Below, piece by piece: positions 3,342 through 26,401 of a stretch of 26,401 nt of DNA (position 1 is the first letter of the stretch; each line of letters begins with the position of its first letter). This DNA is from a virus. The position numbers and the translations under genes were made by a program. The stretch spans positions 1 through 26,401 of the IMG/VR virus record IMGVR_UViG_3300009610_000078, one strand, 5' to 3'. The notes below the pieces were generated by a model. It saw only the letters and a list, made by a program, of their open reading frames with translations. It was not told where the DNA came from and searched no databases.

Positions 3342-3766
3342 ACTGTACCGCCCGAGTGACCATAGCAATGGGACACAGGCTTCTGGGGCACGACGGTCTA
3401 TGCGCAAACATCCATGGCCACAATTACGTGTTCGAAGTGACCGTGATGGGTAACCCTGACGCAGTGGGCCTTGTGACAGACTTCTCGATCCTGAAGAAGG
3501 ACATGCGGAAGCTCCTGGACCAACTCGACCACACGATGCTCCTGATTAAGGGGGACCCGGCCCAGGCGTACTTCGAGTCGACGGACAACCGCTTCATGCT
3601 CCTCACCCGAAATCCGAGTGCGGAGCACATCGCCTCGCTCATGTTCAACCACATGCAGGACCTCGCGTACAGCGTGAAGGAGGTCAGGGTGTTAGAGTCG
3701 GATGGTGGATGGGCCACCACCGACCGTGTTAACCGGGAAGTGCACCTGATAAAGGGGCGTGTATGA
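3338..3766 (+). CDS. queD: 6-carboxy-5,6,7,8-tetrahydropterin synthase QueD
   Basis: QueD converts 7,8-dihydroneopterin triphosphate to 6-carboxytetrahydropterin, the second step of 7-deazaguanine synthesis. This 142-residue protein has the usual length and all visible key residues. Zinc ligands are His13 and the HGH pair His26/His28. The catalytic Cys22 sits in C-ANI-HGH. GLVTDFSILK, LDHTMLL with Asp64-His65, NPSAEHIA and the glutamate in RVLES (Glu120) are also present. The CxxxHGH spacing marks QueD rather than PTPS-only enzymes. It starts at an ATG inside the preceding stop (ATGA) and overlaps queE by 4 bp. FolE supplies its substrate from the same operon. Confidence 0.9.
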   Translation: MNCTARVTIAMGHRLLGHDGLCANIHGHNYVFEVTVMGNPDAVGLVTDFSILKKDMRKLLDQLDHTMLLIKGDPAQAYFESTDNRFMLLTRNPSAEHIASLMFNHMQDLAYSVKEVRVLESDGGWATTDRVNREVHLIKGRV

Positions 3767-4395
3767 ACTACCCACTCGCCGAGAAGTTCAAGTCCATCCA
3801 GGGAGAAGGCATCTTCACAGGCACCCCGATGGCATTCGTCCGCATGGTCGGCTGCTCCGTGGGCCAGGGTGTATGTACTGCCTGCGACACGGACTTTGAC
3901 CGGATGTACCCACAGCTTGGTGGGGGGTTGCACACTCCCCTCCAAATCGCTGAATGGGCAGAGCCCTACCACATCCTCTGCATTACGGGTGGGGAACCAC
4001 TGGACCGCAACCTCTGCCTGCTCGTGGACGTGGTCCACAAGTTCGGAATGAAGGTCCACGTGGAGACCAGTGGCACCGTGGAGTACGATCCCGCAAGACA
4101 CGGCTCCATCGACTGGATCACCGTGTCGCCCAAGCCGGGCTTCCTCCCCACAATGATCGAGCAGGCCTGTGAGCTCAAGGTGATCCTCGGGGGCCTGGGA
4201 GACACTACGGAAGGTTGGCCTACAGTGGAGCAAGCGAGACGCTGGGCCAAGGAGAAGGAGTTGGTCTACCTGCAGCCTCGGAACAAGAAGAACGTGATCG
4301 ACGACATCGAGATGCAGAACGCAGAGGATGTCGTGCTCCACTACCCGGAGCTGAGGCTCAGCACCCAGTTCCACAAGTTCATCAACGTGCGATGA
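3763..4395 (+). CDS. queE: 7-carboxy-7-deazaguanine synthase QueE (radical SAM)
   Basis: QueE is a radical S-adenosylmethionine enzyme that contracts 6-carboxytetrahydropterin to 7-carboxy-7-deazaguanine. This 210-residue protein opens with FKSIQGEGIFTG, the substrate-binding N-terminus of the family. The cluster-binding cysteines are Cys31, Cys38 and Cys41 followed by DTDF. ITGGEPL binds SAM, VSPKPG and ELKVIL follow, and YLQP lies near the C-terminus. The cysteine spacing is C-x6-C-x2-C instead of the common C-x3-C-x2-C; the Burkholderia multivorans QueE also has an expanded loop ending in CDTDF, so function is plausible. The gene is coupled to queD and folE by ATGA overlaps. Confidence 0.9.
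   Translation: MNYPLAEKFKSIQGEGIFTGTPMAFVRMVGCSVGQGVCTACDTDFDRMYPQLGGGLHTPLQIAEWAEPYHILCITGGEPLDRNLCLLVDVVHKFGMKVHVETSGTVEYDPARHGSIDWITVSPKPGFLPTMIEQACELKVILGGLGDTTEGWPTVEQARRWAKEKELVYLQPRNKKNVIDDIEMQNAEDVVLHYPELRLSTQFHKFINVR
3917..3929 (-). repeat. Dispersed motif copy 5 (core, one mismatch)
   Basis: On the minus strand this reads AACCCCCCACCAA. It lies inside queE, encoding LGGGL, and is not at a gene boundary. Confidence 0.5.
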
Positions 4396-4979
4396 CCAAG
4401 ACAACGTTACCCCCCACCAAGCGGTTCGACGACCGCAAGATGCAACAAGGGGTCAAACTCCTCCTGGAGGGAATGGGAGTAGATCTGAGTGATCGTAATT
4501 ACAAGGACACACCTGCCCGCGTCGCACGTATGTACAGGGAACTGTTTACTCCCCGTCACAACAGCTTCGCCACCTTCCCTGAACAACACGACTCCATGGT
4601 CATCCTCCGGGGTCACGTGGTGCACGGAGTCTGCCCACACCATCTCGTTCCAGTGGAGATGCGTGTGTACGTCGGTTACATTCCGCATAAAGAGGTCCTC
4701 GGTCTCAGCAAGCTGGCTCGAGTCGCTGAACAACCTCTCACAGGACCCATTATGCAGGAAACTTACACAGACGCGGTGGTCGATCTCCTGCAACACGCCA
4801 CAGACGCGAAAGGCGCTGGAGTCGTTGTTGTGGGGCGCCATGGTTGCATGCGCCACAGGGGAGTTCGCTCCGACGCAGACGTTGTCTCCTCTGCCATGAG
4901 GGGTCTCTTCATGACCAATCACCCCACCCGAGACGAGTTCCTCCGGATGATCGGCTACCCACGAGTGGAGGCAAGATGA
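4392..4979 (+). CDS. folE: GTP cyclohydrolase I FolE
   Basis: FolE opens GTP to 7,8-dihydroneopterin triphosphate, the entry step for deazaguanines. The protein has 195 residues, close to the usual 180-220. KDTPARVARMY is the typical N-terminal helix motif, and CPHHLVP gives Cys81 and His84 (family CEHH, so Glu is replaced by Pro). GLSKLARV follows, MQET holds the likely guanine-anchoring Glu123, and GRHGCMRHRGVR gives the second zinc cysteine, Cys152. QueF was excluded because the paired-cysteine and HxxHH arrangement is of FolE type. It begins at the ATGA overlap with queE; codons 4-10 contain a full copy of the dispersed motif (TTLPPTK). A phage copy suggests host GTP cyclohydrolase flux is limiting during infection. 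Confidence 0.9.
   Translation: MTKTTLPPTKRFDDRKMQQGVKLLLEGMGVDLSDRNYKDTPARVARMYRELFTPRHNSFATFPEQHDSMVILRGHVVHGVCPHHLVPVEMRVYVGYIPHKEVLGLSKLARVAEQPLTGPIMQETYTDAVVDLLQHATDAKGAGVVVVGRHGCMRHRGVRSDADVVSSAMRGLFMTNHPTRDEFLRMIGYPRVEAR
4403..4420 (+). repeat. Dispersed motif copy 6 (full 18 bp)
   Basis: AACGTTACCCCCCACCAA, 8 bp after the folE start codon, read as TTLPPTK. Confidence 0.75.
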
Positions 4980-5418: not shown

Positions 5419-7892
5419 AGTGTCAAAACTCCGTCTGCAAGTCCGGCCCGGATGGCAAATCCGCAACCTCGGATTTGCACCCGAACACTGGGTTGTGCCC
5501 AGTGTGCCAGAAGCGCTTGATCACGGGACCCAAGCCTGACGACTGTATGGCGTGCCCCCTCTACGAGATTGGTGAGGGGTACGCCTATGGTGTCGGACCC
5601 ACGGATGCCGATATGATGTTCATCGGCGAAGCACTCGGCGAGGAGGAGGCCCGTAGGGGCCTCCCCTTCGTCGGTGGCTCTGGCCGGGTGCTCACTGCGC
5701 TGATGGGCCAAGCGGACATCCGCCGTGACGAGGTCTACATAACCAATGCCGTGAAATGTCGGCCACCCAAGAACAGGAAGCCAGACGATGAAGAAATCCG
5801 ATGGTGTGCCCGCTACCTCGTCAACGAGCTCAAACTCGTCAACCCCAAACTCCTCGTCCCTCTCGGAGCGACTGCGCTCTACGTCACTACAGGAAAGACA
5901 GAGATCGGTAGCTATCGCGGGATACCTATTGAGGGCGCTGGAGGAAGGAAGGTTCTCCCCACGTTTCACCCCGCGTTCGTCATGCGTACACAAACGTTCT
6001 GGCCGGTCGTCGTCTGGGACCTCGTCAAAGCGAAGCGGGAATCGCGGTTCCGGGAAGTCCGTCGCATCGACGTGGAGTATTCCATCCTCCCTGATGCTGA
6101 GGATCACGCAGATGCTGTTAGAAGAGAAGCCGAACTCACCGGCTTCGTCTCGATCGACGCCGAGACAACGAGCCTCGACGTCCATGAAGCTCACATCAAA
6201 TGCTACGGCGTCGGGTCGGCCGCAGGTCGTGCTAGGGTTTTCCGCTGGACCCCTCAAGCTCAGCGCCTACTCTACGGGCTCCTCTCAGATCCTACGATTG
6301 TTAAGGTCGGACAAAACTCCGAATCCTACGACTGGCCCCTCTTCGAAGACAAACGGCCAGGTTGGCGAGTAGCGGGGAACACCTGTGACACGATGCTCAT
6401 GTTCCACCTTACAAACTCCGACCTTCCGAAGTCGCTGGACAACATCAAGACCTTCTACACGGACATGGAGCACTGGAAAGATGACTCTATGTACAAGGGT
6501 GATGAGGTTGGACTGGCCACTGGCTGCGCTAAGGACGTGGACGCGACCACACGTGCTTACCTGGGCCTTCGCGCTGAGATCCACAACATGGGGATGGATG
6601 ACCTCCTATACAAGAACGTGATGCCCCTGCAACCCATCCTCCGTCGCATGGCCGACCGTGGAATTCGGAAGGACACGGACAAAGCGGAACTCTGGGCACA
6701 TGGAATGACCGCGGCCGCAGGCCGCTACGAACAGATGCTCCGGGATGCAGTGGGTCAGCCTAACCTCAACGTGCAGAGCCCCAGGGAGTTGATGAAGCTC
6801 CTGTACGACACCATGGGCCTTCCCGTTCAACACGTGAAGGACCAGAAGGGCGGGATGCGTGCTACGGCGAACGCGGCGGCGGTGGAAGCGCTGGTCGAGA
6901 AGTTCCCGGAGAACAAGATCCTGGGCCTGATCAACGAGATCCGAAGCGCTCACCACACCGTCAGCACGAATCTAGAGGTAAAGACCGATGAGCAGGGCTT
7001 CGTCCACCCACGTTTCGGGTGTGCTAAAGCGGCAACTGGGCGTATCAATTCGTGGGATCCGAACGCCCAGAACATTCCGAAGAAGCTCCGGGAGATCTAC
7101 ATCCCGGACGATCCAGATCACGTTTTCATCAGCGTGGACTGGAGCCAGGTCGAGTGGCGAATTGCAATGGCACTCTCTGGCGATCCTTACGGTCTCGGAC
7201 TTCTGGCGGCTGGTCAGGACATTCACGAGGTTACGGCCGCAGAGGGTTTCGGTCTACCTCTTTCTCGAGTCCGAGACCTCGTTCCCGGTAAGCAGTACAA
7301 TTACCGTTACGCCACGAAGTTCATCGTGTACGGCCTCGGCTACGGACGGGGAGCACAGTCAATCGCTCAGCAGCTCGGGACAACCAAGTCGTGGGTCGAG
7401 TCCTTCCTGCTCCGCTTCTTCAACAAGTACCACGTGTACGAACGGTGGCGCAAGTCCCTCGAGGAACAGGTCGAGCGACAGCACTTCCTCGCTAACCCGT
7501 TCGGCCGACGGAGGTGGTGGTACACCAGGCAAGTGACGGAGATGTACAACTTCCCTCCGCAGAGCACGGGAGCGGACATGATGTACGTCGCCATACGGGA
7601 AGCGGACGAGCAGCTCCCACACGGAGCGAGTGTAAGGCTTACCGTGCACGACGAGCTCGTGGTTGTGAGCCACAGGGATGTAGTGAAGGAGGCCACGGAA
7701 TGTCTCACAAGTGTGATGCAACGCTCATGGCCGGAAATCGTGGGCGCCTCACGCGATCCAGCTACAGTGCGCAAGTTCTATCCTCACGGATGGCGCGTGC
7801 CCGCAGAGCCCAGCTACGGGCCGAGGAATTGGATGGAGACGAAGCTGGAAGGGGAAGCACAGATGAAGTTCAGGAAGGAGCTCGGACTATGA
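5415..7892 (+). CDS. Family 4 uracil-DNA glycosylase/3'-5' exonuclease/family A DNA polymerase fusion
   Basis: This 825-residue protein is a probable replicative polymerase with a repair domain in front. Residues 1-35 hold four cysteines (3, 8, 28, 31), a possible zinc ribbon. Residues 40-205 are a family 4 uracil-DNA glycosylase: CMAC (44, 47), GEALGEEEARRGLPFVG, Cys115, Cys131 and HPAF (His185), where four cysteines bind a 4Fe-4S cluster. The exonuclease follows with DAE (248-250), NSESYD and CAKDVDATTRAY. Polymerase motifs are TGRINSWDPNAQNIP, VDWSQVEWR (Asp575), RYATKFIVYGLGYG and HDE (745-747). Tyr639 occupies the position of E. coli Phe762. It starts with GTG at the overlap with the previous stop. 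UDG fused to PolA is rare but is reported in some phages. The fusion could excise uracil ahead of synthesis; this is inference. Confidence 0.9.
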   Translation: MKCQNSVCKSGPDGKSATSDLHPNTGLCPVCQKRLITGPKPDDCMACPLYEIGEGYAYGVGPTDADMMFIGEALGEEEARRGLPFVGGSGRVLTALMGQADIRRDEVYITNAVKCRPPKNRKPDDEEIRWCARYLVNELKLVNPKLLVPLGATALYVTTGKTEIGSYRGIPIEGAGGRKVLPTFHPAFVMRTQTFWPVVVWDLVKAKRESRFREVRRIDVEYSILPDAEDHADAVRREAELTGFVSIDAETTSLDVHEAHIKCYGVGSAAGRARVFRWTPQAQRLLYGLLSDPTIVKVGQNSESYDWPLFEDKRPGWRVAGNTCDTMLMFHLTNSDLPKSLDNIKTFYTDMEHWKDDSMYKGDEVGLATGCAKDVDATTRAYLGLRAEIHNMGMDDLLYKNVMPLQPILRRMADRGIRKDTDKAELWAHGMTAAAGRYEQMLRDAVGQPNLNVQSPRELMKLLYDTMGLPVQHVKDQKGGMRATANAAAVEALVEKFPENKILGLINEIRSAHHTVSTNLEVKTDEQGFVHPRFGCAKAATGRINSWDPNAQNIPKKLREIYIPDDPDHVFISVDWSQVEWRIAMALSGDPYGLGLLAAGQDIHEVTAAEGFGLPLSRVRDLVPGKQYNYRYATKFIVYGLGYGRGAQSIAQQLGTTKSWVESFLLRFFNKYHVYERWRKSLEEQVERQHFLANPFGRRRWWYTRQVTEMYNFPPQSTGADMMYVAIREADEQLPHGASVRLTVHDELVVVSHRDVVKEATECLTSVMQRSWPEIVGASRDPATVRKFYPHGWRVPAEPSYGPRNWMETKLEGEAQMKFRKELGL

Positions 7893-8122
7893 AAATTGGA
7901 GACATCGAGAGGGACAGCCACACCTCGTGCTACACATGTGGCTGCGGCTGCTTCACCAAGGTGTACAACGTGAACATGCAAGGACGGGGAGAGGAGACAC
8001 TGCACCCAGCGTACCAGTGCGTCCGCTGTGGCAGCGTGCTCGCGTTCCTCCTGGACAAGAATCGGCATCGGGAGGTTGTGGGCAGCATCTGTGTCGAAGT
8101 GAAGATGGAGGTCGCGAAGTGA
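7889..8122 (+). CDS. Small zinc-ribbon protein
   Basis: This 77-residue protein starts at the ATGA overlap with the polymerase gene. CYTCGCGCF near residues 14-22 and CVRCG near 44-48 form two cysteine knuckles, and strands AYQCVRCGSVLAFLL and VGSICVEVKMEV follow. This is a zinc-ribbon pattern. No enzyme motif is visible. It lies directly before the DpdA-like gene with a GTGA overlap, so it could help that enzyme or the polymerase bind DNA, but this is only context. Confidence 0.65.
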   Translation: MKIGDIERDSHTSCYTCGCGCFTKVYNVNMQGRGEETLHPAYQCVRCGSVLAFLLDKNRHREVVGSICVEVKMEVAK

Positions 8123-8841
8123 AGCTGTGTATGGAGATTCCCGTCGAACACCTCTGGGACCTCTCGCCTCTGTGCGAGATGGACTTCGCCCTGGCACACA
8201 TGGTTCTGGACAACAAGCTCTACGCCGAGTTCTACCGGGAGATGAGTGCACGGGGCAGGGAGGTAATCCTTGACAACAGCTTCCACGAGCTGGGAGTGCC
8301 CCTGAGCCCAGTCGAGCTCCGCTTGGCCGCGAGGGCGATAAAGCCCACAGTGGTCGTTGCGCCAGACCGGCTCGGAGATAGAACGTGGAACTGGGAGCAG
8401 TATGAAGAGACGCTCCGTGTGTTCAAGAAGGAGTTCCAGGTCGGGATCGTGGTTACTGGAGGAGATCCCAACGTCCGGAGCCAGTTCATAGCGGCCGCGC
8501 TAAGCCGAGGTTGCAGCTGGTTCTTCTGGCCCTTCAAGGAGCCACGTAGCGAATGGATCCGGACGCACATCCAGGAGTTCAAGCGATACGAGGTCCGGCA
8601 CCATCTCCTCGGAGTGAACACCCTGTCCGAGCTAAAGAGCATCCGCACGATCCTCGAGGAGCAAGGGATCAAGGCAAGTGTGGACACCAGTAAGCCGATC
8701 AAGTTCGGGCAACAGCTGAAGCGGTTCGAGCCGGGGATCGATTTACGGGGAACGGGGCCGTTACGGATGGACGCTGTCCTGACAAAGGAGGAGCTGGCGT
8801 GCACGTACTACAACGTGGCGTATCTCAGGAGATTCGCATGA
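8119..8841 (+). CDS. dpdA: DpdA-like DNA deazaguanine transglycosylase (TGT-like fold)
   Basis: This 240-residue protein looks like the compact phage branch of the tRNA-guanine transglycosylase superfamily. VILDNSFHELG (Asp52) is in the place of the DSGGF-type motif. VVAPDRLGD (Asp83) follows, then GIVVTGGD, and HHLLGVNTLSELK and VDTSKPI later, consistent with alternating strands and helices of a TIM barrel. DpdA enzymes replace guanine in DNA with a 7-deazaguanine. The proposal rests on both the motifs and the folE, queD and queE genes upstream. No C-terminal zinc cluster of bacterial TGT is seen, which fits a DNA rather than a tRNA substrate. It starts at GTG 8119 in the previous stop. Confidence is moderate because the similarity is remote. 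Confidence 0.65.
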   Translation: MKLCMEIPVEHLWDLSPLCEMDFALAHMVLDNKLYAEFYREMSARGREVILDNSFHELGVPLSPVELRLAARAIKPTVVVAPDRLGDRTWNWEQYEETLRVFKKEFQVGIVVTGGDPNVRSQFIAAALSRGCSWFFWPFKEPRSEWIRTHIQEFKRYEVRHHLLGVNTLSELKSIRTILEEQGIKASVDTSKPIKFGQQLKRFEPGIDLRGTGPLRMDAVLTKEELACTYYNVAYLRRFA

Positions 8842-10229
8842 AGCAGGCGACGCCACTCCCAATCAGCCAGCAGATCGCGAAGCTGATGGAGTTCCTCGCC
8901 GGAGTCAACGACGTACGTGGTGGCGCCCTGTACAACCAGATCCTAGAATGGGTCTTGTTGCTCCCACCCGCCTCTCGCCCGCCTGAACTACTCCGTGCGA
9001 TGCAACACAGCTTCCACCTCACGGACGCGGAGCTCTCTACTGCCTTGGACATGAAGAAGAAGCGGATCCCCGACTTCATGTCCCTGGTGCCAGCGCAGAG
9101 CTGGCTTGCGGACTACATGCTCTTCACCCTCAACACGGAGCCGCCTGATGTCTTCCACTTCTTCGCCGGATGTGTCGCTATTGGAAGCGTGCTGGGCCGG
9201 AACGTCTACTACGACAAAGGGGCGTATCAAATCTACCCTAACCTTGCAGTTCTTATCGTTGCACCCTCCGGGAAGTGCCGGAAGACAAGTGCTTGCAATG
9301 TTGCAATGTCCCTCCTGCGCAAGGGGGGTGGAACTGTACTTGCAGACAAAGCTACCCCTGAAGCTCTTACTGCTGCCTTCCAAGACAAGACGGAGTCCAT
9401 CGCTACGATCTACGCCCCGGAGTTCGCGGTCTTCCTCGGCAAGCAAAAGTACCAGGAGGGGATGATCCCCCTCCTGACCGCGCTCTTCGACTGTCCGAAG
9501 GAGTTCAAGAGCGTCACGATCACGAGGGGAGAGGTGATCCTCTACAACGCGGCCTTCTCAATGCTAGCCTGCAGCACCATGGACTGGATCCAGACCGCCA
9601 TTCCGAGGGACGCGTTTGGTGGGGGGTTCATGTCCAGGCTCCTCTTCGTAATCCAACACGACACTCCCCGGATCTTCCCCCGTCCCCCGGCCATGAACAA
9701 GGAACTGGAATCACGGCTGGTCCAGGGACTCAGAACCCTGAGCGGGTTACGGGGGGAGTTCCACATGACTGCCGAAGGCGAGCAGTGGTACGACAACTGG
9801 TATCTCAACAGAGGGGAGTCAGGGAACACGGACAAGCAGTTCGCCGGGTACTCGGAGCGGAAGCCGGATCACCTTATCCGTCTCGCCATGATCCTCTCAG
9901 CGAGTGGCGGAAGTTCCTTGGTCCTCACTCCTGCTAACCTGAAGCGGAGTCTCCAGATTCTGGAGTGGTTGGAGCTCTTCCTCCCAGGTGCCTTCGGAGA
10001 GATGAACCAGAACGCCTTCGGAGAAGATCAGTCACGGTTGCTGACCCAGCTCAAGCGGAAGGGTGGCAAGATGCTCCACAGCGACTGGCTCCGCTTGAAC
10101 AGCAATCGGATGAGACAGAGGGAGTTCCGGGAACTGATGGAGACCCTGAAGAGCGCAGGCCTCGTCGAGTACGACGCGCCCACACATACGTACTTCCTAA
10201 CAACAGAGGGATGGGCTTTCAACACCTAG
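8838..10229 (+). CDS. DUF3987-like helicase or primase-helicase
   Basis: This 463-residue protein starts at ATG 8838 after AGGAGA. An N-terminal helical part is followed by PPDVFHFFAGCVAIGSVLGRNVYYD, and then the nucleotide-binding strand LIVAPSGKCRKTSA (residues 139-152). The glycine before the P-loop Lys149 is replaced by Arg, an arrangement known in phage DUF3987 proteins. APEFAVFLG with Glu195 fits Walker B, and FGGGFMSRLLFV (260-271) carries the conserved arginine-finger-like segment. A C-terminal helical domain ends in a winged-helix-like part (GLVEYDAPTHTYFLT). A replicative helicase partner for the polymerase is the likely role; no primase motif is seen. Copy 9 of the dispersed motif falls in the GGGF codons, so there protein constraint may explain it. 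Confidence 0.65.
   Translation: MKQATPLPISQQIAKLMEFLAGVNDVRGGALYNQILEWVLLLPPASRPPELLRAMQHSFHLTDAELSTALDMKKKRIPDFMSLVPAQSWLADYMLFTLNTEPPDVFHFFAGCVAIGSVLGRNVYYDKGAYQIYPNLAVLIVAPSGKCRKTSACNVAMSLLRKGGGTVLADKATPEALTAAFQDKTESIATIYAPEFAVFLGKQKYQEGMIPLLTALFDCPKEFKSVTITRGEVILYNAAFSMLACSTMDWIQTAIPRDAFGGGFMSRLLFVIQHDTPRIFPRPPAMNKELESRLVQGLRTLSGLRGEFHMTAEGEQWYDNWYLNRGESGNTDKQFAGYSERKPDHLIRLAMILSASGGSSLVLTPANLKRSLQILEWLELFLPGAFGEMNQNAFGEDQSRLLTQLKRKGGKMLHSDWLRLNSNRMRQREFRELMETLKSAGLVEYDAPTHTYFLTTEGWAFNT
9616..9628 (-). repeat. Dispersed motif copy 9 (core, one mismatch)
   Basis: On the minus strand this reads AACCCCCCACCAA. It lies inside the helicase gene in codons for a conserved FGGGF segment, so it may be coincidence. 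Confidence 0.4.
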
Positions 10230-17367: not shown

Positions 17368-19100
17368 TTCTTCATCTCCGCGTTGATCCTTGCGACTTCA
17401 GCCCAGTCACCCTTCTCCAAGGCAGTCTTCAACGCCGCAGCGTTCTCCATGACGTGGGTCTTCATCGCGATCGAACTGCTCGGATCCTGGATAATCCTCT
17501 TCGCGTAGTCGGCGTAGCCCTTCGCGATACTCTGACTGGTCTCCGGAGTGATCTCTCCAACCATCTGAACGGGTCCACTCCTCGGAGTCGTGGGCATCAT
17601 TCCGATACCCGTGCTCTGTGGAATCGGGTTCGTGGTGAGTGCGTGCGCTGTCCCTCGAAGCGCACCCTCGCCGAGTGCGAGCGCCTTTGCACCCCCCTTC
17701 CAGTGTCGGTCGAGTTGGACCAAGAAGATCTCCGTCGCCAACTCTGTGAAACCGATCCCCGGCTTGTAGTCGCAGGAGGCAGTTTCGGGGCCCGCAGACT
17801 TGCAGAACTCCTTCTGCATGTCCATTACGTACCGGGTCTTCTGTGCGTCGTTCGGTGCCCGCATGGCCAAGTCGTTCAGGGCCTTGAACCTGGGACTCTG
17901 GATCAACGCTTCCCGGTGATCGTCCTCGAACTTAAGCCTTTGAGCCTCTTTGATGGAGAGCTCAACCTCGGCCATCTTGTCCGGCGGGAGCACGAAGCCC
18001 TCTGGCGCCTTCCCGGTCGTCAACCACTTGTACGCGACCCCTTGAGCAATCTCTGGATCCACTCCGTTGAGCGCCAGGGTCGAGGCCGTCTTCATGGTCT
18101 CCTGGGCGAGCGCAGTTGCGGTCTTCTGCTTGTTGAGGGCGTGCTCCGCCGCCCTAATCTGATAGGTCTTCTCGTCCACTGTGATCTTCTTCTTCGAGAG
18201 GGAAGGGCCGAGCCGCTTCTTCGTCTCTGGCGTGAGGACCTTGTCCGGGTTGTCGATGCTCTCCGCCCACTCACTGATGTCCTTTGGATCAGCGTCCGGG
18301 AACTCTTTCAACAGTTCCGTCCGCCGTGCCACGGCCATCTTCTCGTACCAACCAGGTGTAGAGGGAACCTCCTTCTCCACCTCTTGCTCGATCAAGCGCT
18401 GCTTCCCACGGAACGCGAGGATCCCTTCCTTAGTGAAGGGAACGTCAAGGAGCTTCTGTAACGCAGCCTCGTTCCCAGCCTCGACGTTCGACACAAGGGT
18501 CTTGTTCCGGAGGACCTCTACTGCGGTCTTGGACTCCTCTGCCTCTGCCTCCGCGACAGCTTTACGTCGGGCTGCAGCGAGCTGTGGTGACACAGTGTAG
18601 TCGGGACGACCGCTTGCGCTCTTAGGATTCCCGAAGGCATCCGTCCCCTTGCCGAAGGCACCCGCTGGGATCCCCTCGGTCACGGTAAGAGATGGAATGC
18701 CCTTACTGTCAGTAGTGTACGCAGGGATCTGAGACTTCTTGAGAGGTGGCTCGTAACCCTCTTTCAGCGTCTCGTGTTCCTTCCGATGCCGGAACCGCGT
18801 GAACGGGCTCTCGTTCTCGTGCTTCATCCGCTCGATCCGCTTGGGATCAAGGATCCGCATCACCGCGGGCATGTTCTGCAACCGCGTTGCTTCCTCAGGA
18901 TCCGTCTGCTTCAGCTTCGTGAGCTCCAGCTCCCACTTCGCTTGATCGAGCTCTGCCTGCTCGAGGTCCTGCTTCTGCTTCTGCTCTATGATCTGGTTCC
19001 TGGCGTAAGCCTGAACGATCTTCTCCAACGCAGGACCTAGGGACTCCATGAAGGAGGGCTCGACGATGTACGCTTCCTTCGTCTCACGAATTTTCGGCAT
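17364..19100 (-). CDS. Charged helical virion protein of unknown function, 578 aa
   Basis: This 578-residue protein is predicted largely helical. Residues about 30-70 (IIEQKQKQDLEQAELDQAKW and onwards) look like a coiled coil. Most of the rest is Lys/Glu/Ala-rich, with a lone SAGPETASCDYKPG segment, and the last 100 residues are more hydrophobic and proline-containing (TTNPIPQSTGIGMMPTTPR). No family is recognised. ATG 19100 follows AAGGAG and overlaps the S74 gene by 17 bp. Between the S74 protein and the giant virion protein it is probably an internal or tail virion component. Confidence 0.55.
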   Translation of the reverse strand: MPKIRETKEAYIVEPSFMESLGPALEKIVQAYARNQIIEQKQKQDLEQAELDQAKWELELTKLKQTDPEEATRLQNMPAVMRILDPKRIERMKHENESPFTRFRHRKEHETLKEGYEPPLKKSQIPAYTTDSKGIPSLTVTEGIPAGAFGKGTDAFGNPKSASGRPDYTVSPQLAAARRKAVAEAEAEESKTAVEVLRNKTLVSNVEAGNEAALQKLLDVPFTKEGILAFRGKQRLIEQEVEKEVPSTPGWYEKMAVARRTELLKEFPDADPKDISEWAESIDNPDKVLTPETKKRLGPSLSKKKITVDEKTYQIRAAEHALNKQKTATALAQETMKTASTLALNGVDPEIAQGVAYKWLTTGKAPEGFVLPPDKMAEVELSIKEAQRLKFEDDHREALIQSPRFKALNDLAMRAPNDAQKTRYVMDMQKEFCKSAGPETASCDYKPGIGFTELATEIFLVQLDRHWKGGAKALALGEGALRGTAHALTTNPIPQSTGIGMMPTTPRSGPVQMVGEITPETSQSIAKGYADYAKRIIQDPSSSIAMKTHVMENAAALKTALEKGDWAEVARINAEMKK

Positions 19101-20706
19101 CGGCCATCTCCTTCGCAGCCAGCATCAGGATCCCTATCACGTCGACCGCGTGGATAGTCCGTCCATCACCAACGCCGAACAGCCTCTTCATGTCCTGAGC
19201 CATCGGGCCGATGTGGATCGTCCCATCGTTCGTGTAGCGCCACGTGCTGATGTCCAGCTCACGGAGGGCCTTAAGCACGCTGCCACGGAAGGGCACTACG
19301 TCCTCCTTGGCCTCGCGGTCCGACTTCGTAATCGCGGCAGCTCCAAGCGTCCCCGCCAAGAGGCCCAGCGTTTGGAAGAGACTGTTCCCCTGACCCTGCA
19401 CAACAGGCTTCGGATTGGGATTCGGTGGGAAGCCCGTTGCCATTCCGAGGGCGTAGTTCATGTAGGGGTTCTCCTGCTGACGGATGAACTCCTGATACGG
19501 CCTCGTGATGTTCCCTTCCTGGATGCCCAGATCCATGCCCGCCAACTGAGCGAGGATGCTGCCATACTGTCCGTATCCCTGTGACTGGGCCGTGGTCATC
19601 CCGGGAATGATCCCTGCTCCCCCGAGCAACCTGTTCTGCTGACTCTCCCATGCACCCTGTAACGCGGTGCCCTTCTGCACGTTCATATCGGCGATCGTCC
19701 GACCCTGTCCCCTGGCCACAGCCTCCGCGACATCCGAGCCCGCACCGAGGCCCATCGCTCCGTACTGCTCCCGAATCTGGGCCCCTACGTCCTCAAGCTG
19801 CCCCTTGCCCTGTGTGTCGATCGCTTGCATCTGTTGCTCGAGCCCGGGGTACGCACCCTGCATCTGCCCGATGAGGCTCTCGAAGAGGCCGCCGTACTTG
19901 TTGCTGGTGCTCGCTGCACCGGCTCCCGCCTGGGCCGCCTGGTCCATGTAGGGGCTTCCCCCCATCATCAAATTGCCGCCATAGCCCGGAGTGGTCGCGT
20001 TGAAGTTCTGGGTGAGGAAGCCACCTAGCGCCTCTCGCAGAGCCCTGATGTCTGGGGGAATGTTCCCCGCGGTGTAGATGTTGTTGATCGCAGTGCCGGT
20101 TGGGCTGTCACGGGGCGGGGCGTCCGGGTTATCCGTTACGCAGACTCCGTTCTCCTCATGCATTCCCCTCGGGCACCCGCCTCCTGGGCTTCCAGGTAGC
20201 TGTCCCCAGGTACAGTACCCCAACTTGTTCCGGACCTGTCCTGCCGGACAGGGAGCATTGGGGTCGGGAGCGTTCGGGTCAGTTGGCCCAGGTGTACTGT
20301 TCCCCGGTGGTGGGAGCTGGTGGCACGATCCGTCTGCCTCCCTGACGTAGCCCTCTGGACAAGTAGTCGAGCCGCTTCCCCCGCGTGGATCCCCTCCAGT
20401 CTCCCCACCCCTGTCGATGATCGGCTGGTACGTACCACCTGTCCCCTGCGTCGAGAAGTAGTTGGCTAGGTCCCCGAGGCCAGTCATCCCGCTCTGCGGA
20501 GGGGTGTACGTCTGGGACGTAGGAGCAGTAGCCTGCGTCGTAGGCGCAGCCGTCCGAGTCTGCGTACCGGTCGGAGTCTGCTGCCCAGCCTGCTGGCCCA
20601 CAAGCTGGTCGATCGTCTGATACCGGGCAAGGGTGTCCAGCTTCTGCTGGTGATACGGATCGTAGCCCAGTACGTCTAGGCCGAAGTAGTCGTTTGCAAG
20701 TGCCAT
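19084..20706 (-). CDS. Virion protein with Cys-rich repeats and C-terminal Peptidase S74 chaperone domain
   Basis: This 540-residue protein ends in a Peptidase S74 (intramolecular chaperone) domain from about residue 460: TKSDREAKEDVV, LKALRELDISTWRY, HIGPMAQDMKRLFG and DVIGILMLAAKEM. The Ser-Asp at its start is the usual self-cleavage point of endosialidase-type chaperones. Before it, residues 40-75 are Thr/Pro/Gln-rich. Three CPxGxxxxxxxGxC units lie near 113, 152 and 175, and a Gly/Ala/Gln-rich helical middle spans about 220-440. The domain normally folds and trimerises fibres or spikes; here the middle looks helical rather than a beta-helix, so it may act on an internal virion or tail-tip protein. 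ATG follows AGAGGAA. Confidence 0.75.
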   Translation of the reverse strand: MALANDYFGLDVLGYDPYHQQKLDTLARYQTIDQLVGQQAGQQTPTGTQTRTAAPTTQATAPTSQTYTPPQSGMTGLGDLANYFSTQGTGGTYQPIIDRGGETGGDPRGGSGSTTCPEGYVREADGSCHQLPPPGNSTPGPTDPNAPDPNAPCPAGQVRNKLGYCTWGQLPGSPGGGCPRGMHEENGVCVTDNPDAPPRDSPTGTAINNIYTAGNIPPDIRALREALGGFLTQNFNATTPGYGGNLMMGGSPYMDQAAQAGAGAASTSNKYGGLFESLIGQMQGAYPGLEQQMQAIDTQGKGQLEDVGAQIREQYGAMGLGAGSDVAEAVARGQGRTIADMNVQKGTALQGAWESQQNRLLGGAGIIPGMTTAQSQGYGQYGSILAQLAGMDLGIQEGNITRPYQEFIRQQENPYMNYALGMATGFPPNPNPKPVVQGQGNSLFQTLGLLAGTLGAAAITKSDREAKEDVVPFRGSVLKALRELDISTWRYTNDGTIHIGPMAQDMKRLFGVGDGRTIHAVDVIGILMLAAKEMADAENS

Positions 20707-21732: not shown

Positions 21733-23805
21733 CTATACGTAGTACGGGACGTAGACCGGGGAGCCCCCAACATAGAACTTGAGGAACCCGGAATTGGTGG
21801 AGCCGTTGCCTGATGTGCCGGGGAAATTGCCGTTATCGGGGGTGCCGACCCACCGTCCGATGTACGCGTTGTAGTATGAATCGACGTGATACACACCCGA
21901 ACTGAACCCCGCTGCGCTCCACACATTACCTTGGACGTAGAGGCCAGTGTTGCAGTAGATGCCGTAGCTCCCATGCCCTTGAATGTACCAAGTGGTCTGA
22001 TAAGCCTCACCGCCTTGGCCCGGATAGATCAGTCCACCGGGGTGGAAGTTGCTGCGCCAGACGTTGGTCGAGGTCCCAATGGTGCCGGACGCGGTGAAGT
22101 TACCGGATACATCGAAACCCCCAATGTACGTATCGTTCAAGTTCCTGAACGCGATCCCGTGGCCCTTTAGATAGGTGACGCTGCTCGACTCGAAAAACAG
22201 GCGCTGGTGGCCCTCACTGCTGTTGTGCCATACAGACACAGGGAACGTTATCCCACCAGCCACCCAAAGGCCCCCGGCCAAATACAACCCGGTATTCGAC
22301 TTCAGGCCGTAGCTAGCGTGCGAGCTCAGATACCATTGGCTCTGCGTCGTCCACCCTGTGTCTTCCCGGCCGGGATATATCGGTGCCGTCGAGTAGAGGT
22401 CCCAACCTGACGTAATGCTGTTGCCTGCCCCCCGAACTACTACGATTGAGCTCGCACTAACGTAGATTCCGTTCTGGAAGTCCGTGGCGCCGCGGCACGT
22501 CAGGTCACCAAGACTGTTCGAGGTCCCTGTTGTCCAAACGAACGACGCTCTGAGAGGCGCATACGCTGCGGCAGGTGTACCAGCGGTGACGACCTCAAGA
22601 TAACCCGGATACCCGTAGGGATTCCCGTCACGTAAAGCAGGGTAGGTGTCCGTTTGCGCGCCAAACTTCAAACTCGCATTGACATTGGTCGGAAGCACCA
22701 ACGCACCAGACAGGGACAACGCTCCGCCGATGTTGACGTTCCCATTGCGATACCACGTCATCGGGATGCTCTGGATGGCCGTGTCGCCATCATCGAGCAT
22801 GTACAGGTTCAGGTTCCCCGAAGCGTGTTGCAGTTTGCAATACCGAGTGCCAGCAGCATAGCCTCCTGCATAAAATCCAAGGTCCGCATAGGTGGAGCTA
22901 TAAATCTTCAACTCCTGTCCACCGATTTGGTGCTTCCCTGTATCGGCGAGGGCCAGCCGCTTTGTTAGCACTCCAGTTGTAGACACGGTGTAAGCGTCGA
23001 TGCGCGTGGCATCGAGCACCAGCAGCGCCCCGCCATTGGCGGTATCATCCTGCGACCACGCCGAACCGGTGTAGTAGAAGTTAGCGGAAATGTCGACGCG
23101 ACCGCCCGGCACCGCTTGGAACACGCGGCCCTTGGCAACGTCACCACCTGTCTGGAGAATGAGTTCCGGACGGGTCTTATTGATTAGGACGTTGCCGACC
23201 CACGTAGACTTTCCCGCCCGGTCAATCATCATTACCGTGGGGCCGGTCGTCTCCGCGTCGGTGATCGCTTCAACCCTGAGCGACTGTCCGTAGGCATACA
23301 GTGCCCACTTCTTCCCATCGACAGGCGCAGACATTTCCGAGAAGTTGATCCCAGCCACACCGGTCGCAGCGGTGAGCCGGAGATGAGGATACGGTCCTGT
23401 CAATTCGAGTTTGACTATCTGGTCGTTGCCACCTGGCTCGTGCTGGACGTGGTGCGGCTGGGTGTTGTCTCCTGTATCCCCTTTCGGACCTTCGGGCCCT
23501 GTTTCTCCCTGAATACCTTGTATTCCCTGTGGGCCCGTCGCTCCAGTATTGCCAGTGTCTCCTTTATCTCCCTTAGCTCCCGTATCGCCTTTGACTCCTT
23601 GGACTCCTTGTGTTCCTTGGACACCTTGGTCCCCCTCATCTCCCTTTACGCCCTGGACACCTTGTGGGCCGATGGGGCCAGTATCGCCCTGGATACCTTG
23701 CTCACCCTGGATACCTTGAGGCCCCTGCGGCCCTACTGGTCCGACGCTCGTCGGGTTCCAAATGGGAACCCACTCCGTGGTTACAGGATCAGGGATGTCT
23801 GCCAT
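21733..23805 (-). CDS. Collagen-like tail fibre, 690 aa
   Basis: The N-terminus, [17 protein letters not shown], is shared with the other fibre. It is followed by about 30 collagen-like Gly-X-Y triplets (GPQGIQG, GDTGAKGDKGDTG types) to about residue 120. The remainder is beta-rich with many Gly, Tyr and Trp. Two similar units occur: IYPGREDTGWTTQSQWYLSS near 475 and IYPGQGGEAYQTTWYIQG near 592, each continuing SYGxxxNTGLYxxGxxW. This is a receptor-binding fibre layout: anchor, collagen stalk, repeated beta domains. No clear S74 domain is seen. ATG 23805 overlaps the preceding gene by 17 bp and has a weak ribosome site, so coupling is likely. Confidence 0.85.
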   Translation of the reverse strand: MADIPDPVTTEWVPIWNPTSVGPVGPQGPQGIQGEQGIQGDTGPIGPQGVQGVKGDEGDQGVQGTQGVQGVKGDTGAKGDKGDTGNTGATGPQGIQGIQGETGPEGPKGDTGDNTQPHHVQHEPGGNDQIVKLELTGPYPHLRLTAATGVAGINFSEMSAPVDGKKWALYAYGQSLRVEAITDAETTGPTVMMIDRAGKSTWVGNVLINKTRPELILQTGGDVAKGRVFQAVPGGRVDISANFYYTGSAWSQDDTANGGALLVLDATRIDAYTVSTTGVLTKRLALADTGKHQIGGQELKIYSSTYADLGFYAGGYAAGTRYCKLQHASGNLNLYMLDDGDTAIQSIPMTWYRNGNVNIGGALSLSGALVLPTNVNASLKFGAQTDTYPALRDGNPYGYPGYLEVVTAGTPAAAYAPLRASFVWTTGTSNSLGDLTCRGATDFQNGIYVSASSIVVVRGAGNSITSGWDLYSTAPIYPGREDTGWTTQSQWYLSSHASYGLKSNTGLYLAGGLWVAGGITFPVSVWHNSSEGHQRLFFESSSVTYLKGHGIAFRNLNDTYIGGFDVSGNFTASGTIGTSTNVWRSNFHPGGLIYPGQGGEAYQTTWYIQGHGSYGIYCNTGLYVQGNVWSAAGFSSGVYHVDSYYNAYIGRWVGTPDNGNFPGTSGNGSTNSGFLKFYVGGSPVYVPYYV

Positions 23806-24139
23806 TGTTCAACCAATCGATCGCCTCTAACGCATGTCGAGCCGGTGTCCCTGACTGCCACGGTACGATCGTCAGGTAGTTGTACAACATGTCGGCCTCG
23901 TCCAACGTGATCTCCAACACGGCCCCGTTCACGAGCTGCCGCTCGGCCTCTCCATTCACCATCTTCTTCCCGCAGGGCTTCAACTCGCTGATGGCCTCCA
24001 GCTTCTCGAACAGTGCGACCTCTTTCCGCAGGAGCTGAATCCCCTTCTTGTCGCTCATGGACCCTCCGAGCACGAATCCCACGAAGAGGAACTCGAAGTG
24101 CCTCGGGCCCAGCTCATCGCTCAAGTCCAGTGTGATCAT
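23789..24139 (-). CDS. Small conserved phage protein of unknown function
   Basis: This 116-residue protein starts at the ATGA overlap with the HxH fibre gene. It begins [19 protein letters not shown], like small phage proteins of unknown role. It continues with a helix KGIQLLRKEVALFEKLEAI, strand AVLEITLDEADMLYNYL and a final helix PARHALEAIDWLNN. An internal ATG at 24058 has a strong GGAGGG site, so a shorter 89-residue product is possible. It lies between two fibres and could assist their assembly, which is only positional. Confidence 0.55.
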   Translation of the reverse strand: MITLDLSDELGPRHFEFLFVGFVLGGSMSDKKGIQLLRKEVALFEKLEAISELKPCGKKMVNGEAERQLVNGAVLEITLDEADMLYNYLTIVPWQSGTPARHALEAIDWLNNGRHP

Positions 24140-25443
24140 AGCTTGTAGCAGTAGATCATGTCGAAGTACGGCGGATAGTGGTTCGTAGCCCAGCCCGTGT
24201 TGTTAACAACCGCGATAGCGGGGGCAGCAGTCACGCTTCCATCGATCCCTTGTCCCCCGTCACTTGGGATTCCACCTGTAAGCGCGAGGTGGTGCGAGTG
24301 CAAACCCGCGTTGTTCGTATTGTCACTGTAATCGATGTTATGATCGTGTGGACCCCGAGCCATGTTGCCACTGTTTCCCGCGTCCACGTTCATATCGCCG
24401 TTGTTGTTGCTCCCTGTTGTCCCATGCACTCCGAACGCGTGGCTGTGCTCGCCTTCATTGTCCGTTCGTCCATCGATCCCGACAAGCCCGCCGTGATTGT
24501 GGCTAGGCAACGTAAGCCCAGCTGCAGCATGCCCGTGTGCCGGGATCGCAAGGCCCCCCGCTCCGTGGTAGTGGTCCGTCGCACCGTAGGGTCCACTATA
24601 AGTCGCTGATGATCGGAAGAAGTGACCGTCCCACCACGGAGCTCTAGCCCATCCCGCTGGACACCCTTCCCAGAACATGGCGACCATGTGCTGAGGGATC
24701 TGATCGGGAATCGTCGCCCATACTCCGTCTCCGCGGAGGTAGTACGCACTGCTCCCGTTGAAGTTCACAGTGGACACGTTACCCAGGCCCAGGTTCGTCC
24801 GAGCCGTCCCGGTGTCCGTCGCCCCCGTCCCGCCCTCGCTTACAGGGATCACAGCTACGGTGCTAGGCTCGCCCCAGATACTCTTCACATATCCGTTGGC
24901 CAGCAGATTCAACGCCCGCTCACTCACGAGCGTGGGATGGTTGCTCACCATCCAATACGTGCCATCGACCACTGGCCCGATTGGACCCTGTACTCCCGGG
25001 GGACCCTGTACACCCTGTGGGCCCTGTGGACCCGTCGGTCCAGGAGGGCCTACGGAGCTGCTGATCCCCACTCCAGGCCACGGTTCTGGGGGCGTCGTGG
25101 TACCATCGACCACACACATGTAGGCGATGCCGTCCGGCCCGATCACGATGTCCCCGTCGTAGTACACTGGAGCCGCGGGATACGCTCCCAGGTAGTCGAG
25201 GTTCATCCCTCCACCCGGCCCGCCACCCGTCGCGTTGATGATCACCTGTCCCGGTACGGAGAGGTCGATCTCTACGTTGTCCCCTGCAACGAGCGTCCTC
25301 GCGTTCTCCAGCGTAGGCTCATCCGTCGCCGTAACGAAGGACTCGTTGAGGGCAGGAGTCTCCCCCGGAGGTCCTTGTGGCCCCTCTGACTTGGAGTTCC
25401 AGATCGGGACCCACTCAGTGGTTGCTGGATCCGGTGAGCTCAT
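24136..25443 (-). CDS. Tail fibre with collagen-like segments and HxH repeats (collar/needle-like tip)
   Basis: This 435-residue protein begins [19 protein letters not shown], then GPQGPPGE, and a second collagen-like run [19 protein letters not shown] near 130-150. After [19 protein letters not shown], a typical fibre hinge, it reads [20 protein letters not shown] near 255-275. Residues about 290-395 carry six HxH motifs (HYH, HGH, HNH, HSH, HDH, HSHH). Collar-type tips such as the T4 gp37 needle bind iron through HxH residues of three chains, so a metal-bound trimer is proposed here. The C-terminus [12 protein letters not shown] is typical of collar domains. It starts at the ATGA overlap with the next protein upstream. 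Confidence 0.8.
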
Positions 25444-26063
25444 GTGATGGTGACCATCGGCTGCTGTTTGGGACTCTCAGTGATTTCCAGTGAGTGCGCC
25501 CGGTAAGCCGCGTTCGTCCCCGCCGTCGCAACCGTATCCGCTACCATGTTAGCCGTCAACGCCGCCCGCGTATGCACCGACATCAACGGGGTCGCGGGTT
25601 GCACTATTCGTTGGGTCCACCCAGTTGGAGCATTGCCAGCTGCTGCGACCGCTACGCCACGCGTTCCGCAACGGACACCCCACGACGTCCCGGTAGTGAT
25701 GACCGACAGTGCCGGGTATATGATCGTCTGGGTATTGGCACCGTTAGCCACGAAGCTGGTCCTGTAGTTCAGAGTCTTCTCGGTGTCGGGACGCAGTACC
25801 AGTACACATATCTGTGTGGCGTTAGTCCACGTCCCCGTAGTATGATTCGACGCGGTCGCAAGTGCCCAAGCCGACGTCAGCGCCAACGTGTTTGCCCCAG
25901 CAGCCTGCGGCATGTTCCAGTCCGGAACCGTGCCACCTGCCGCCGGTTTAGTGGCCTGAACGTTGTTCAACCTCTGCGTGAACACCAGCATCATGTCCCC
26001 CGGCTGATGCGCTGGGATCGCAACACTTGCTGCTGCAGCTGATGCTGTCCCTTGAACTATCAC
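25440..26063 (-). CDS. Small phage structural protein, 207 aa
   Basis: This 207-residue protein starts with GTG overlapping the preceding stop. SVAIPAHQPGDMMLVFTQRLNN, then Thr/Ala-rich strands (LTSAWALATASNHTTGTW), and WTQRIVQPATPLMSVHTRAAL give a beta-sandwich-like pattern. PxHxxGDxLL followed by GW-containing strands is a common virion or fibre-associated module. The exact role is unknown. It precedes the HxH fibre in a tight operon. Confidence 0.55.
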   Translation of the reverse strand: MIVQGTASAAAASVAIPAHQPGDMMLVFTQRLNNVQATKPAAGGTVPDWNMPQAAGANTLALTSAWALATASNHTTGTWTNATQICVLVLRPDTEKTLNYRTSFVANGANTQTIIYPALSVITTGTSWGVRCGTRGVAVAAAGNAPTGWTQRIVQPATPLMSVHTRAALTANMVADTVATAGTNAAYRAHSLEITESPKQQPMVTIT

Positions 26064-26401
26064 GGTGTGTGCTCGATGAACAACGATACACCCAAATTCG
26101 ACGGAGTCCCGACTGGAGACGAGAGGACGATTGTCAACTCATCATCCGCTGCAAGGGCCTGGCTGAACGCCGTGGTCGCTGCGGTCCCGGTCGCCGTGAT
26201 AACGGAGCCCAAGTTCCCACCGTTCCGACGCACCTGCACCCCTACGCTGGTCCCGGACCCCAGACGCGTCCGTACTCCAATCAACGAGGCTGCCTGGGTG
26301 CCTAGCATCGGTACGAACATCGACGGCAAAGTGGTCAACGCGGATACATCTCCCACGAGACCCCATGTATGGCCGAGCCGAAACGGCCGCGTGATCCCGA
26401 C
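26060..26401 (-). CDS. Virion protein, partial at the right edge
   Basis: The frame is open to the window edge, where it begins VGITRPFRLGHTWGLVGDVS, so the true start lies outside; the GTG at 26356 is internal. The visible 113 residues continue LTTLPSMFVPMLG and a Gly/Thr/Ala-rich beta region ending VSLFIEHTP. The stop overlaps the next start (GTGA). It looks like a structural or fibre-associated protein. No family is recognised. Confidence 0.5.
   Translation of the reverse strand, partial: VGITRPFRLGHTWGLVGDVSALTTLPSMFVPMLGTQAASLIGVRTRLGSGTSVGVQVRRNGGNLGSVITATGTAATTAFSQALAADDELTIVLSSPVGTPSNLGVSLFIEHTP

What the first reader, a model, noticed from the sequence alone, without database searches (positions are those of the whole stretch)
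21733..25443. Two fibres share the same N-terminal anchor
[13 protein letters not shown] followed by a collagen-like run begins both the 690-aa and the 435-aa fibre. The N-terminus of a fibre binds the tail, so both may compete for or share one attachment site, giving mixed or branched receptor-binding structures. A duplication followed by tip exchange is likely.
Basis: partly seen in the sequence, partly recalled or inferred. Interest (0 to 1): 0.5.

Follow-up and report, generated by a model that had tools for sequence, protein, structure and literature searches.

The report
Plug-and-socket chain of phage fibres
Two tail-fibre genes of an uncultured virus of bacteria begin with the same short peptide, and comparison with relatives suggests it is a plug that fits a small socket domain in another fibre, so that fibres can be chained like building blocks.

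Summary
In detail: both fibres (690 aa, 21733-23805; 435 aa, 24136-25443) begin with [13 protein letters not shown] and go on into Gly-X-Y repeats. The proposed origin is not supported: compared with a sister phage, the window phage has a ~1.48-kb insertion inside the fibre A gene that gives the front half a new tip and the back half a new anchor peptide. The peptide is a widespread N-terminal module ("plug") of uncultured phages. It tracks a ~45-aa domain ("socket", weakly CBM5/12-like) in the fibre genes. Socket and plug numbers are equal in 76 of 76 scored representative loci (0:0 to 5:5, hand tally, three weak extra matches set aside). Automatic whole-record counts agree in 43 of 50; the other seven are five fragments that start just before the plug and two with an extra weak socket match. 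Usual order: socket-only, plug+socket (repeated), plug-only; three loci depart from it. Most likely each plug fibre docks on a socket of an earlier fibre, making chained or branched receptor-binding assemblies. Docking itself is inferred. It resembles the KP32/G7C anchor-branch systems, with a different peptide and partner domain.

The parts
24136..25443 (-). Fibre A, 435 aa: plug + socket domain + collagen-like repeats + His-rich C-terminal tip
25396..25434 (-). Plug of fibre A ([13 protein letters not shown], residues 4-16)
   Evidence: coordinates from the reading frame
25060..25197 (-). Socket (S) domain of fibre A, residues 83-128
   Evidence: HMM hit 4.9e-29; 4e-23 with the rebuilt model (G004:33293-33433)
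23789..24139 (-). 116-aa conserved protein (P116); overlaps the end of fibre A by 4 nt and the start of fibre B by 17 nt
21733..23805 (-). Fibre B, 690 aa: plug + long collagen-like run + different tip; no socket domain found
23755..23793 (-). Plug of fibre B ([13 protein letters not shown], residues 5-17)
   Evidence: coordinates from the reading frame
25440..26063 (-). 207-aa ORF carried by the inserted cassette; PHROG 13352 (minor tail protein) match
26060..26401 (-). C-terminal end of the front fibre (cut by the window end). In record G004 the full ORF starts with the KLPYDFPLEPP N-terminus and carries its own socket, outside the window
25354..26401 (-). Window part of the ~1,482-bp cassette absent from sister phage G001 (it continues past the window end to about 26835 in window numbering): socket + new tip for the front half, 207-aa ORF, plug for the back half

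Best explanation
The shared N-terminus is a portable docking peptide (plug). A plug fibre attaches by it to a small socket domain (S) of another fibre, most likely one encoded upstream. The first fibre of the operon has no plug and reaches the virion by its own N-terminal domain; middle fibres carry plug and socket; the last carries only a plug. In the window phage the chain would be front fibre (S), then 435-aa fibre A (plug + S), then 690-aa fibre B (plug). The middle link arose when a cassette carrying one socket and one plug inserted into the fibre A gene. Shown here by sequence: the module, its conservation, the insertion, the matching numbers and the usual order. Inferred: physical docking, which plug sits in which socket, and that all links are trimers.
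For: (1) 30 of 31 IMG/VR stretches with EWVPIWN have it near a protein N-terminus followed by Gly-X-Y repeats; 0 of 13 in bacterial genome contigs are such fibres. (2) 18 genes with TTEWVPIWN use 18 different coding sequences, mean third-position identity 0.37. (3) Of 57 representative loci, 45 could be scored, 8 end in or just after the S fibre and 4 have neither feature. A looser plug pattern added 29 records, 27 of them scorable. #S equals #P in 72 of 72, or 76 of 76 with the four 0:0 loci; 100,000 shuffles gave at most 49. (4) Automatic profile counts on whole records: equal in 31 of 36 and 12 of 14. (5) L186 and L199 (two sockets in one fibre, then two S-less plug fibres) and L198 and L206 (two sockets, then plug+S, plug, plug) keep the equality. 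(6) Of 33 representative records reached by the P116 scan, 29 have S and plug, 4 have neither, 0 have one alone; in the four, the homologous fibre has no S. (7) The window cassette adds one S and one plug.
Against: No physical evidence of docking. Socket-plug similarity does not single out the next gene: in 14 plug+socket genes S correlates 0.22 with the next plug and 0.30 with its own. Three loci break the usual order: L174 (last gene keeps S; counting one more degenerate plug would make it 3:4), L178 (socket fused directly to an internal plug), L181 (one frameshifted plug+S gene and an upstream fibre without S). Seven of 50 whole records are unequal by automatic count: G006, G020, G024, G039, G040 have a plug and no S but begin less than 1.3 kb before the plug; G019 and G034 have one extra weak S match (an 86-aa frame outside the fibre genes; a partial second hit inside one gene). 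Loci are related, not independent trials; representatives and the 76 tally were made by hand. The last plug gene is cut by the record end in L079, L089, L097 and L183, the first fibre in L096, L172 and L186. S also resembles a carbohydrate-binding module. L112, one of the 'neither' loci, has a further fibre-like gene with another N-terminus.
Confidence: 0.72

Rival explanations
1. The peptide is a direct virion anchor. Both fibres bind equivalent sites on the tail hub, as fibres with one N-terminal motif bind the adenovirus penton base, giving mixed virions or several fibres per site.
For: Short, strongly conserved N-terminal motif followed by a trimeric shaft. Adenovirus fibres with the conserved FNPVYPY tail bind the penton base, and several adenoviruses carry two fibre genes (passages of PMC8156859).
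Against: Plug genes follow first fibres whose N-termini look unrelated by eye (at least four kinds), so a common hub site is unlikely. It gives no reason for #S = #P or for joint absence of both.
Confidence: 0.17
2. S is a receptor-binding carbohydrate module, and plug plus socket travel together only because the recombining unit happens to be [S - tip - stop - start - plug]. The equal numbers then reflect how the genes recombine, not docking.
For: S is weakly CBM5/12-like. The window cassette is such a unit; its tip, 207-aa ORF and plug align with G022 over 1,036 bp.
Against: Would allow S without plug or plug without S; none of the 72 scored loci shows that (fragments apart). Two-socket fibres followed by two socket-less plugs (L186, L199, L198, L206) do not follow from one fixed unit. 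The last plug fibre usually lacks S.
Confidence: 0.12
3. The anchor of the 435-aa fibre is an in-genome duplicate of that of the 690-aa fibre (or the reverse), with later tip exchange.
For: Same peptide in neighbouring fibre genes of one genome.
Against: Clean insertion relative to G001. The 45 nt upstream of fibre A's anchor match G015 at 29/45 but its own fibre B at 10/45; fibre B's anchor matches G001's at 68/72 nt.
Confidence: 0.04
4. The plug is bound by the conserved 116-aa protein (an adaptor or chaperone) rather than by another fibre.
For: P116 lies between fibre A and fibre B in the window and is highly conserved.
Against: P116 follows the His-rich-tip fibre, whichever N-terminus that fibre has. 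It was not found in many plug loci (for example L055, L056, L061, L064, L078, L176) and is present in four loci without plug.
Confidence: 0.05

Closest known systems
KP32 / KP34 / G7C anchor-branch receptor-binding proteins (PMC6872550 and PMC13082707, passages seen)
   Same: A first RBP anchored to the virion offers a docking domain; the second RBP attaches, or is modelled to attach, by a short conserved N-terminal peptide (as short as 7 residues; 29 in KP32); some group members have one partner truncated.
   Different: There the docking domain is T4gp10-like and the peptides differ; here the partner domain is ~45 aa and weakly CBM5/12-like, shafts are often collagen-like, and up to six fibres form one series.
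K1-5 / SP6-type adaptor with two tailspikes (PMC6872550)
   Same: Two RBPs held by short conserved N-terminal peptides (7 and 11 residues).
   Different: There a separate adaptor protein with a T4gp10-like domain holds both; here the sockets lie inside the fibres and the plugs are one family.
CBA120 / RaK2 branched tailspike complexes (PMC10253068, passages)
   Same: Several RBPs assembled into one branched unit by conserved N-terminal modules.
   Different: There the modules are folded domains (XD, D1, D2); here one side is a ~13-residue peptide.
Adenovirus fibre tail motif FNPVYPY (PMC8156859, passages)
   Same: Short conserved N-terminal peptide of a trimeric fibre as the attachment device; two fibre genes in some viruses.
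   Different: Binds a capsid protein, not another fibre.
ExsF with the F-Anchor N-terminal peptide (PDB 9h3d, seen only as an entry title)
   Same: By its title, an N-terminal peptide bound to ExsF, which matches the C1q/TNF-like tip fold.
   Different: Spore surface; the matched fold is the tip, not S.

Membership tests
Anchor-branch RBP system (KP32/G7C type) | Second RBP begins with a short conserved peptide | tested here: met
   Plug in fibres A and B and in the relatives
Anchor-branch RBP system (KP32/G7C type) | First RBP carries a T4gp10-like docking domain | tested here: inconclusive
   No gp10-like name among the families listed for the fibres scanned (lists capped at 25), but the front fibre of the window phage was not scanned whole and remote structure was not tested; the co-varying domain is S
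Anchor-branch RBP system (KP32/G7C type) | Physical docking of the second RBP on the first | not testable with these tools
   Needs binding assays or structures
CBM_5_12 (PF02839), for the S domain | Score at or above Pfam's gathering cut-off | tested here: not met
   Best 25.1 bits against 26.2 (L078:15953-16693); a typed S domain of a relative had no hit, nor did the window's 435-aa fibre at E<=0.1
Collagen (PF01391) | Gathering cut-off, fibre B (690 aa) | tested here: met
   55.5 bits against 27.2
Collagen (PF01391) | Gathering cut-off, fibre A (435 aa) | tested here: not met
   18.5 bits against 27.2
Phage tail collar domain (label recalled), for the His-rich tip | Pfam match | tested here: not met
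   No collar family at E<=0.1 for the 435-aa protein

The most novel reading that the evidence does not exclude
Many uncultured tailed phages build their receptor-binding apparatus from an interchangeable plug-and-socket kit, with one socket per plug and an order that usually follows the gene order. Chains and branches of two to six fibres grow when cassettes carrying one socket and one plug insert into a fibre gene, so a new tip is added while the severed old tip is kept in service.
Probability: 0.6. Interest if true: 0.85.

Novelty: new variant of a known kind. Interest (0 to 1): 0.7.

Why it matters
It would let the wiring of a phage's receptor-binding apparatus be read from sequence alone (count plugs and sockets), and it gives a concrete route by which phages gain extra receptor-binding tips without losing old ones. 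It also supplies a short, strongly conserved peptide and a ~45-aa partner domain that could be tested directly for binding.

Tried and rejected
Duplication inside the genome: rejected on the junction and on flank comparison. Known isolates: the 435-aa fibre, the anchor, the S domain and two plug+S fibres gave no credible match in 50,697 phage records; the one weak anchor hit (Xanthomonas phage M29, E=5) lies at the C-terminal end of a hypothetical gene and is taken as chance. The 1550-aa neighbour also had no match. Bacterial genomes: 13 stretches match EWVPIWN, none is N-terminal in a fibre. P116: AlphaFold2 model of good confidence (pLDDT 90.3); no PDB match at E<=0.001, best BFVD match E=0.012 to an uncharacterised protein; function left open. 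AlphaFold2 of a plug+S fibre (L078, pLDDT 78.9): the plug has low confidence and no coordinate file was laid in the Python box, so contact with S could not be measured; the structure searches informed mainly the tip, residues about 108-249. Socket-plug similarity: over 53 pairs S and next plug correlate at r=0.65, but shared ancestry confounds this, and among 14 plug+socket genes it does not tell which socket takes which plug. Tree of P116: the four loci with neither feature need three changes by parsimony, but well-supported branches force only one. Papers: no hit for the peptide EWVPIWN; two searches returned none; some searches gave listings; passages only were read of PMC6872550, PMC8156859, PMC10253068 and PMC13082707. 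That I found no report of this kit rests on these searches only.

Rows left out of the hand tally: weak S hits in L067 (4158-4418, an 86-aa frame), in L185 (2336-2470) and a second partial hit inside one L078 gene (seen again); the degenerate plug of L174; the 8 loci whose contig ends in or just after the S fibre (L148, L150, L161, L162, L165, L169, L170, L175); L196 and L212, whose records start just before the plug. Near-copies represented once, judged by eye: L016 and L023 with the window phage; L009, L024 with L055; L026 with L057; L034 with L065; L076 with L084; L021, L030 with L136; L098, L100 with L099; L114, L117 with L115; L123, L131 with L124; L160 with L159. Some similar pairs remain counted separately (L187/L191, L193/L197, L198/L206, L158/L159, L057/L063).
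Full report
WHAT IS THERE. The window is a whole IMG/VR virus record of 26,401 bases. It is identical over its full length to part of a 49,383-base record, G004. The two fibres are at the stated places. They share [13 protein letters not shown] at the N-terminus, followed after a few residues by Gly-X-Y repeats. Fibre A (435 aa) and the 116-aa gene overlap by 4 nt, and the 116-aa gene and fibre B (690 aa) by 17 nt (coordinates), so they look like one transcription unit.

THE PEPTIDE IS A MODULE. A degenerate DNA pattern for EWVPIWN found 31 stretches in IMG/VR. In 30 the peptide lies near the start of a protein and is followed by Gly-X-Y repeats (L022 is chance). In bacterial genomes 13 stretches matched and none is such a fibre. 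A second pattern (PDPATTEW) left the rest of the motif free and showed tolerated variation: EWVPIWT, EWVPIWS, EWIPIWN, EWVPLW, EWVPLY; some of these proteins lack collagen repeats. Eighteen genes with TTEWVPIWN use 18 different coding sequences. The first scan demanded EWVPIWN itself, so invariance of those seven residues is partly ascertained. A profile of the anchor on 28 whole records gave two copies in five of them (G004, G010, G012, G015, G017) and one in the other 23, ignoring three matches at E above 0.01. G012 and G017 show the same two N-termini as the window phage.

WHERE FIBRE A GOT ITS ANCHOR. In the sister phage G001 (83-94% identical DNA in the aligned stretches) the fibre with A's tip is a single 647-aa ORF that begins with an unrelated N-terminus (...AIKLPYDFPLEPPLTDYSRRYF...) and has no plug. 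In G004 the same gene is interrupted: the alignment runs to G001 position 5750 and resumes at 5759, with 1,482 bp in between. The insert ends the front half with a new socket, collagen repeats and tip, adds a 207-aa ORF, and restarts the back half with the plug. No direct repeat of 8 bp or more was found at its ends, only one 8-bp inverted match. Its tip, 207-aa ORF and plug align over 1,036 bp at 65% with G022, and the stretch around the plug over 103 bp at 77% with G015. Upstream of the motif, fibre A's gene matches G015 at 29 of 45 bases and fibre B of its own genome at 10 of 45; fibre B's plug region matches G001's at 68 of 72 bases. So the two anchors are not a recent in-genome duplication. 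In G001, in turn, fibre B appears as two genes, the second restarting with another N-terminus (MADGVLKVRVGGGWQPV).

THE SOCKET. One further domain recurs in the fibres upstream of a plug fibre: [34 protein letters not shown]. With a profile of it, the 25 representative loci then in hand (window phage counted once) showed one pattern: the first fibre has the domain and no plug, middle fibres have both, the last has a plug and no domain (the last plug gene of L079 is cut by the record end). I then tested this on records chosen in other ways. (i) Exact S peptide: 16 records, 14 already known; the two new ones both have a plug downstream, in new variants. (ii) P116 scan: 46 loci. As 33 representatives, 29 have S and plug, 4 have neither, none has only one. 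Counting only records first reached by this scan, 7 have both and 4 neither, which by chance would be 1 in 330 (own arithmetic). In the four, the tip region follows a linker or collagen with no S found; one of them, L112, has a further fibre-like gene with another N-terminus and neither feature. (iii) S profile: 54 loci, 18 new records, of which 8 end in or just after the S fibre. (iv) A looser plug pattern: 71 stretches, 29 new records; 27 can be scored after fetching more of one.

THE TALLY. Of 57 representative loci, 45 can be scored, 8 end in or just after the S fibre and 4 have neither. With the 27 this makes 72 with at least one plug or socket. #S = #P in all 72: 44 loci 1:1, 19 loci 2:2, 7 loci 3:3, one 4:4 (L176), one 5:5 (L078, six fibres). 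Adding the four 0:0 loci gives 76 of 76; 100,000 shuffles of the numbers gave 31 matches on average and at most 49. These numbers were read off by hand, three weak S hits and one degenerate plug were set aside, and related loci are not independent. As a check without hand scoring I counted both profiles on whole records. In 36 records the counts are equal in 31. G006, G020 and G024 have a plug but no S and begin within about 1 kb of it. G019 has an extra weak S match in an 86-aa frame outside the fibre genes (2:1), and G034 a partial second match inside one gene (6:5). In 14 more records counts are equal in 12, including the 3:3 ones and L174; G039 and G040 are short fragments that begin just before the plug. 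In the 12 equal ones no further socket or plug lies elsewhere in the record.

The most telling cases are L186 and L199, where one fibre has two S domains and two socket-less plug fibres follow, and L198 and L206 with two S, then plug+S, plug, plug (in L186 the first fibre is cut at its start). L185 holds two series, the second started by a fibre with another N-terminus (IRVKTTTGWAELVIQGPPG) and its own S. The order rule is broken in three loci: L174, L178 and L181. L174 counts as 3:3 only if a degenerate plug (PDPLTPPPLPI) is not counted. The last plug gene is cut by the record end in L079, L089, L097 and L183, the first fibre in L096, L172 and L186.

MECHANISM. The simplest reading is that the peptide docks on the S domain of another fibre. 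Gene order and the missing S in the last fibre suggest that each plug fibre sits on a fibre encoded before it; where one fibre has two S domains, a branch is implied. First fibres with N-termini that look unrelated by eye (KLPYDFPLEPP-like in the window group, a hub-like 1054-aa ORF in L067, MADGVLKVNVAGQW in L062, those of L055 and L061) all carry S, so the kit seems independent of how the first fibre meets the virion. Inferred, not shown: binding, stoichiometry in the particle and pairing. Similarity of sockets to plugs did not favour the next gene over the gene itself (0.22 against 0.30 in 14 genes).

WHAT S AND THE TIPS LOOK LIKE. S in L078 is just under the Pfam cut-off for CBM_5_12 (25.1 against 26.2 bits), so a carbohydrate-binding role is a live rival. 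A model of one plug+S fibre (L078) has a C1q/TNF-like tip (Z 10.7 to lectin BC2L-C, Z 10.6 to a chain of the cyanophage A4 portal-tail complex). The tips of fibres A and B were not modelled. P116 is well folded in the model but without a clear match among solved structures; it follows the His-rich-tip fibre whichever N-terminus that fibre has.

COMPARISON. Second receptor-binding proteins held by a short N-terminal peptide are known from KP32, KP34 and G7C-like phages and from K1-5 with its adaptor (PMC6872550, PMC13082707; passages). There the docking domain is T4gp10-like. This system would work alike but has another peptide, another partner domain and longer series, and was not found in 50,697 phage records with the queries used. 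I rate it a new variant of a known kind.

Noticed in passing
3338-4979 (+): QueD-like, QueE-like and GTP cyclohydrolase genes in a row, as in a 7-deazaguanine pathway for DNA modification, near DNA polymerase, primase and Sak4-like genes.
   Followed up: no
19084-20706 (-): A 540-aa protein ends in an endosialidase-type S74 chaperone domain although it does not look like a fibre (PHROG 8003, virion structural).
   Followed up: no
L054 oriented 7313-10027: In the sister phage fibre B appears as two genes; the second restarts with MADGVLKVRVGGGWQPVPTLGPIGPTGP, another N-terminal type also seen on the first fibre of L062 and, in looser form, in L174 and L185.
   Followed up: partly
L178 1725-2564: A socket directly followed in the same polypeptide by a plug-like segment and a tip, as if two links had fused.
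   Followed up: partly
L036, L037, L038, L045: DPGDPEWVPIWNP inside long ORFs of Planctomycetota, Phycisphaerae and Brocadiia genome bins that resemble conjugation ATPases (recalled label); the motif match is taken as coincidence.
   Followed up: no
L081-L083, downstream of the plug fibre: Another conserved 116-aa gene (M..STxQMALTRDxxPGGFMERV...), by eye unrelated to P116, recurs near the fibres.
   Followed up: no
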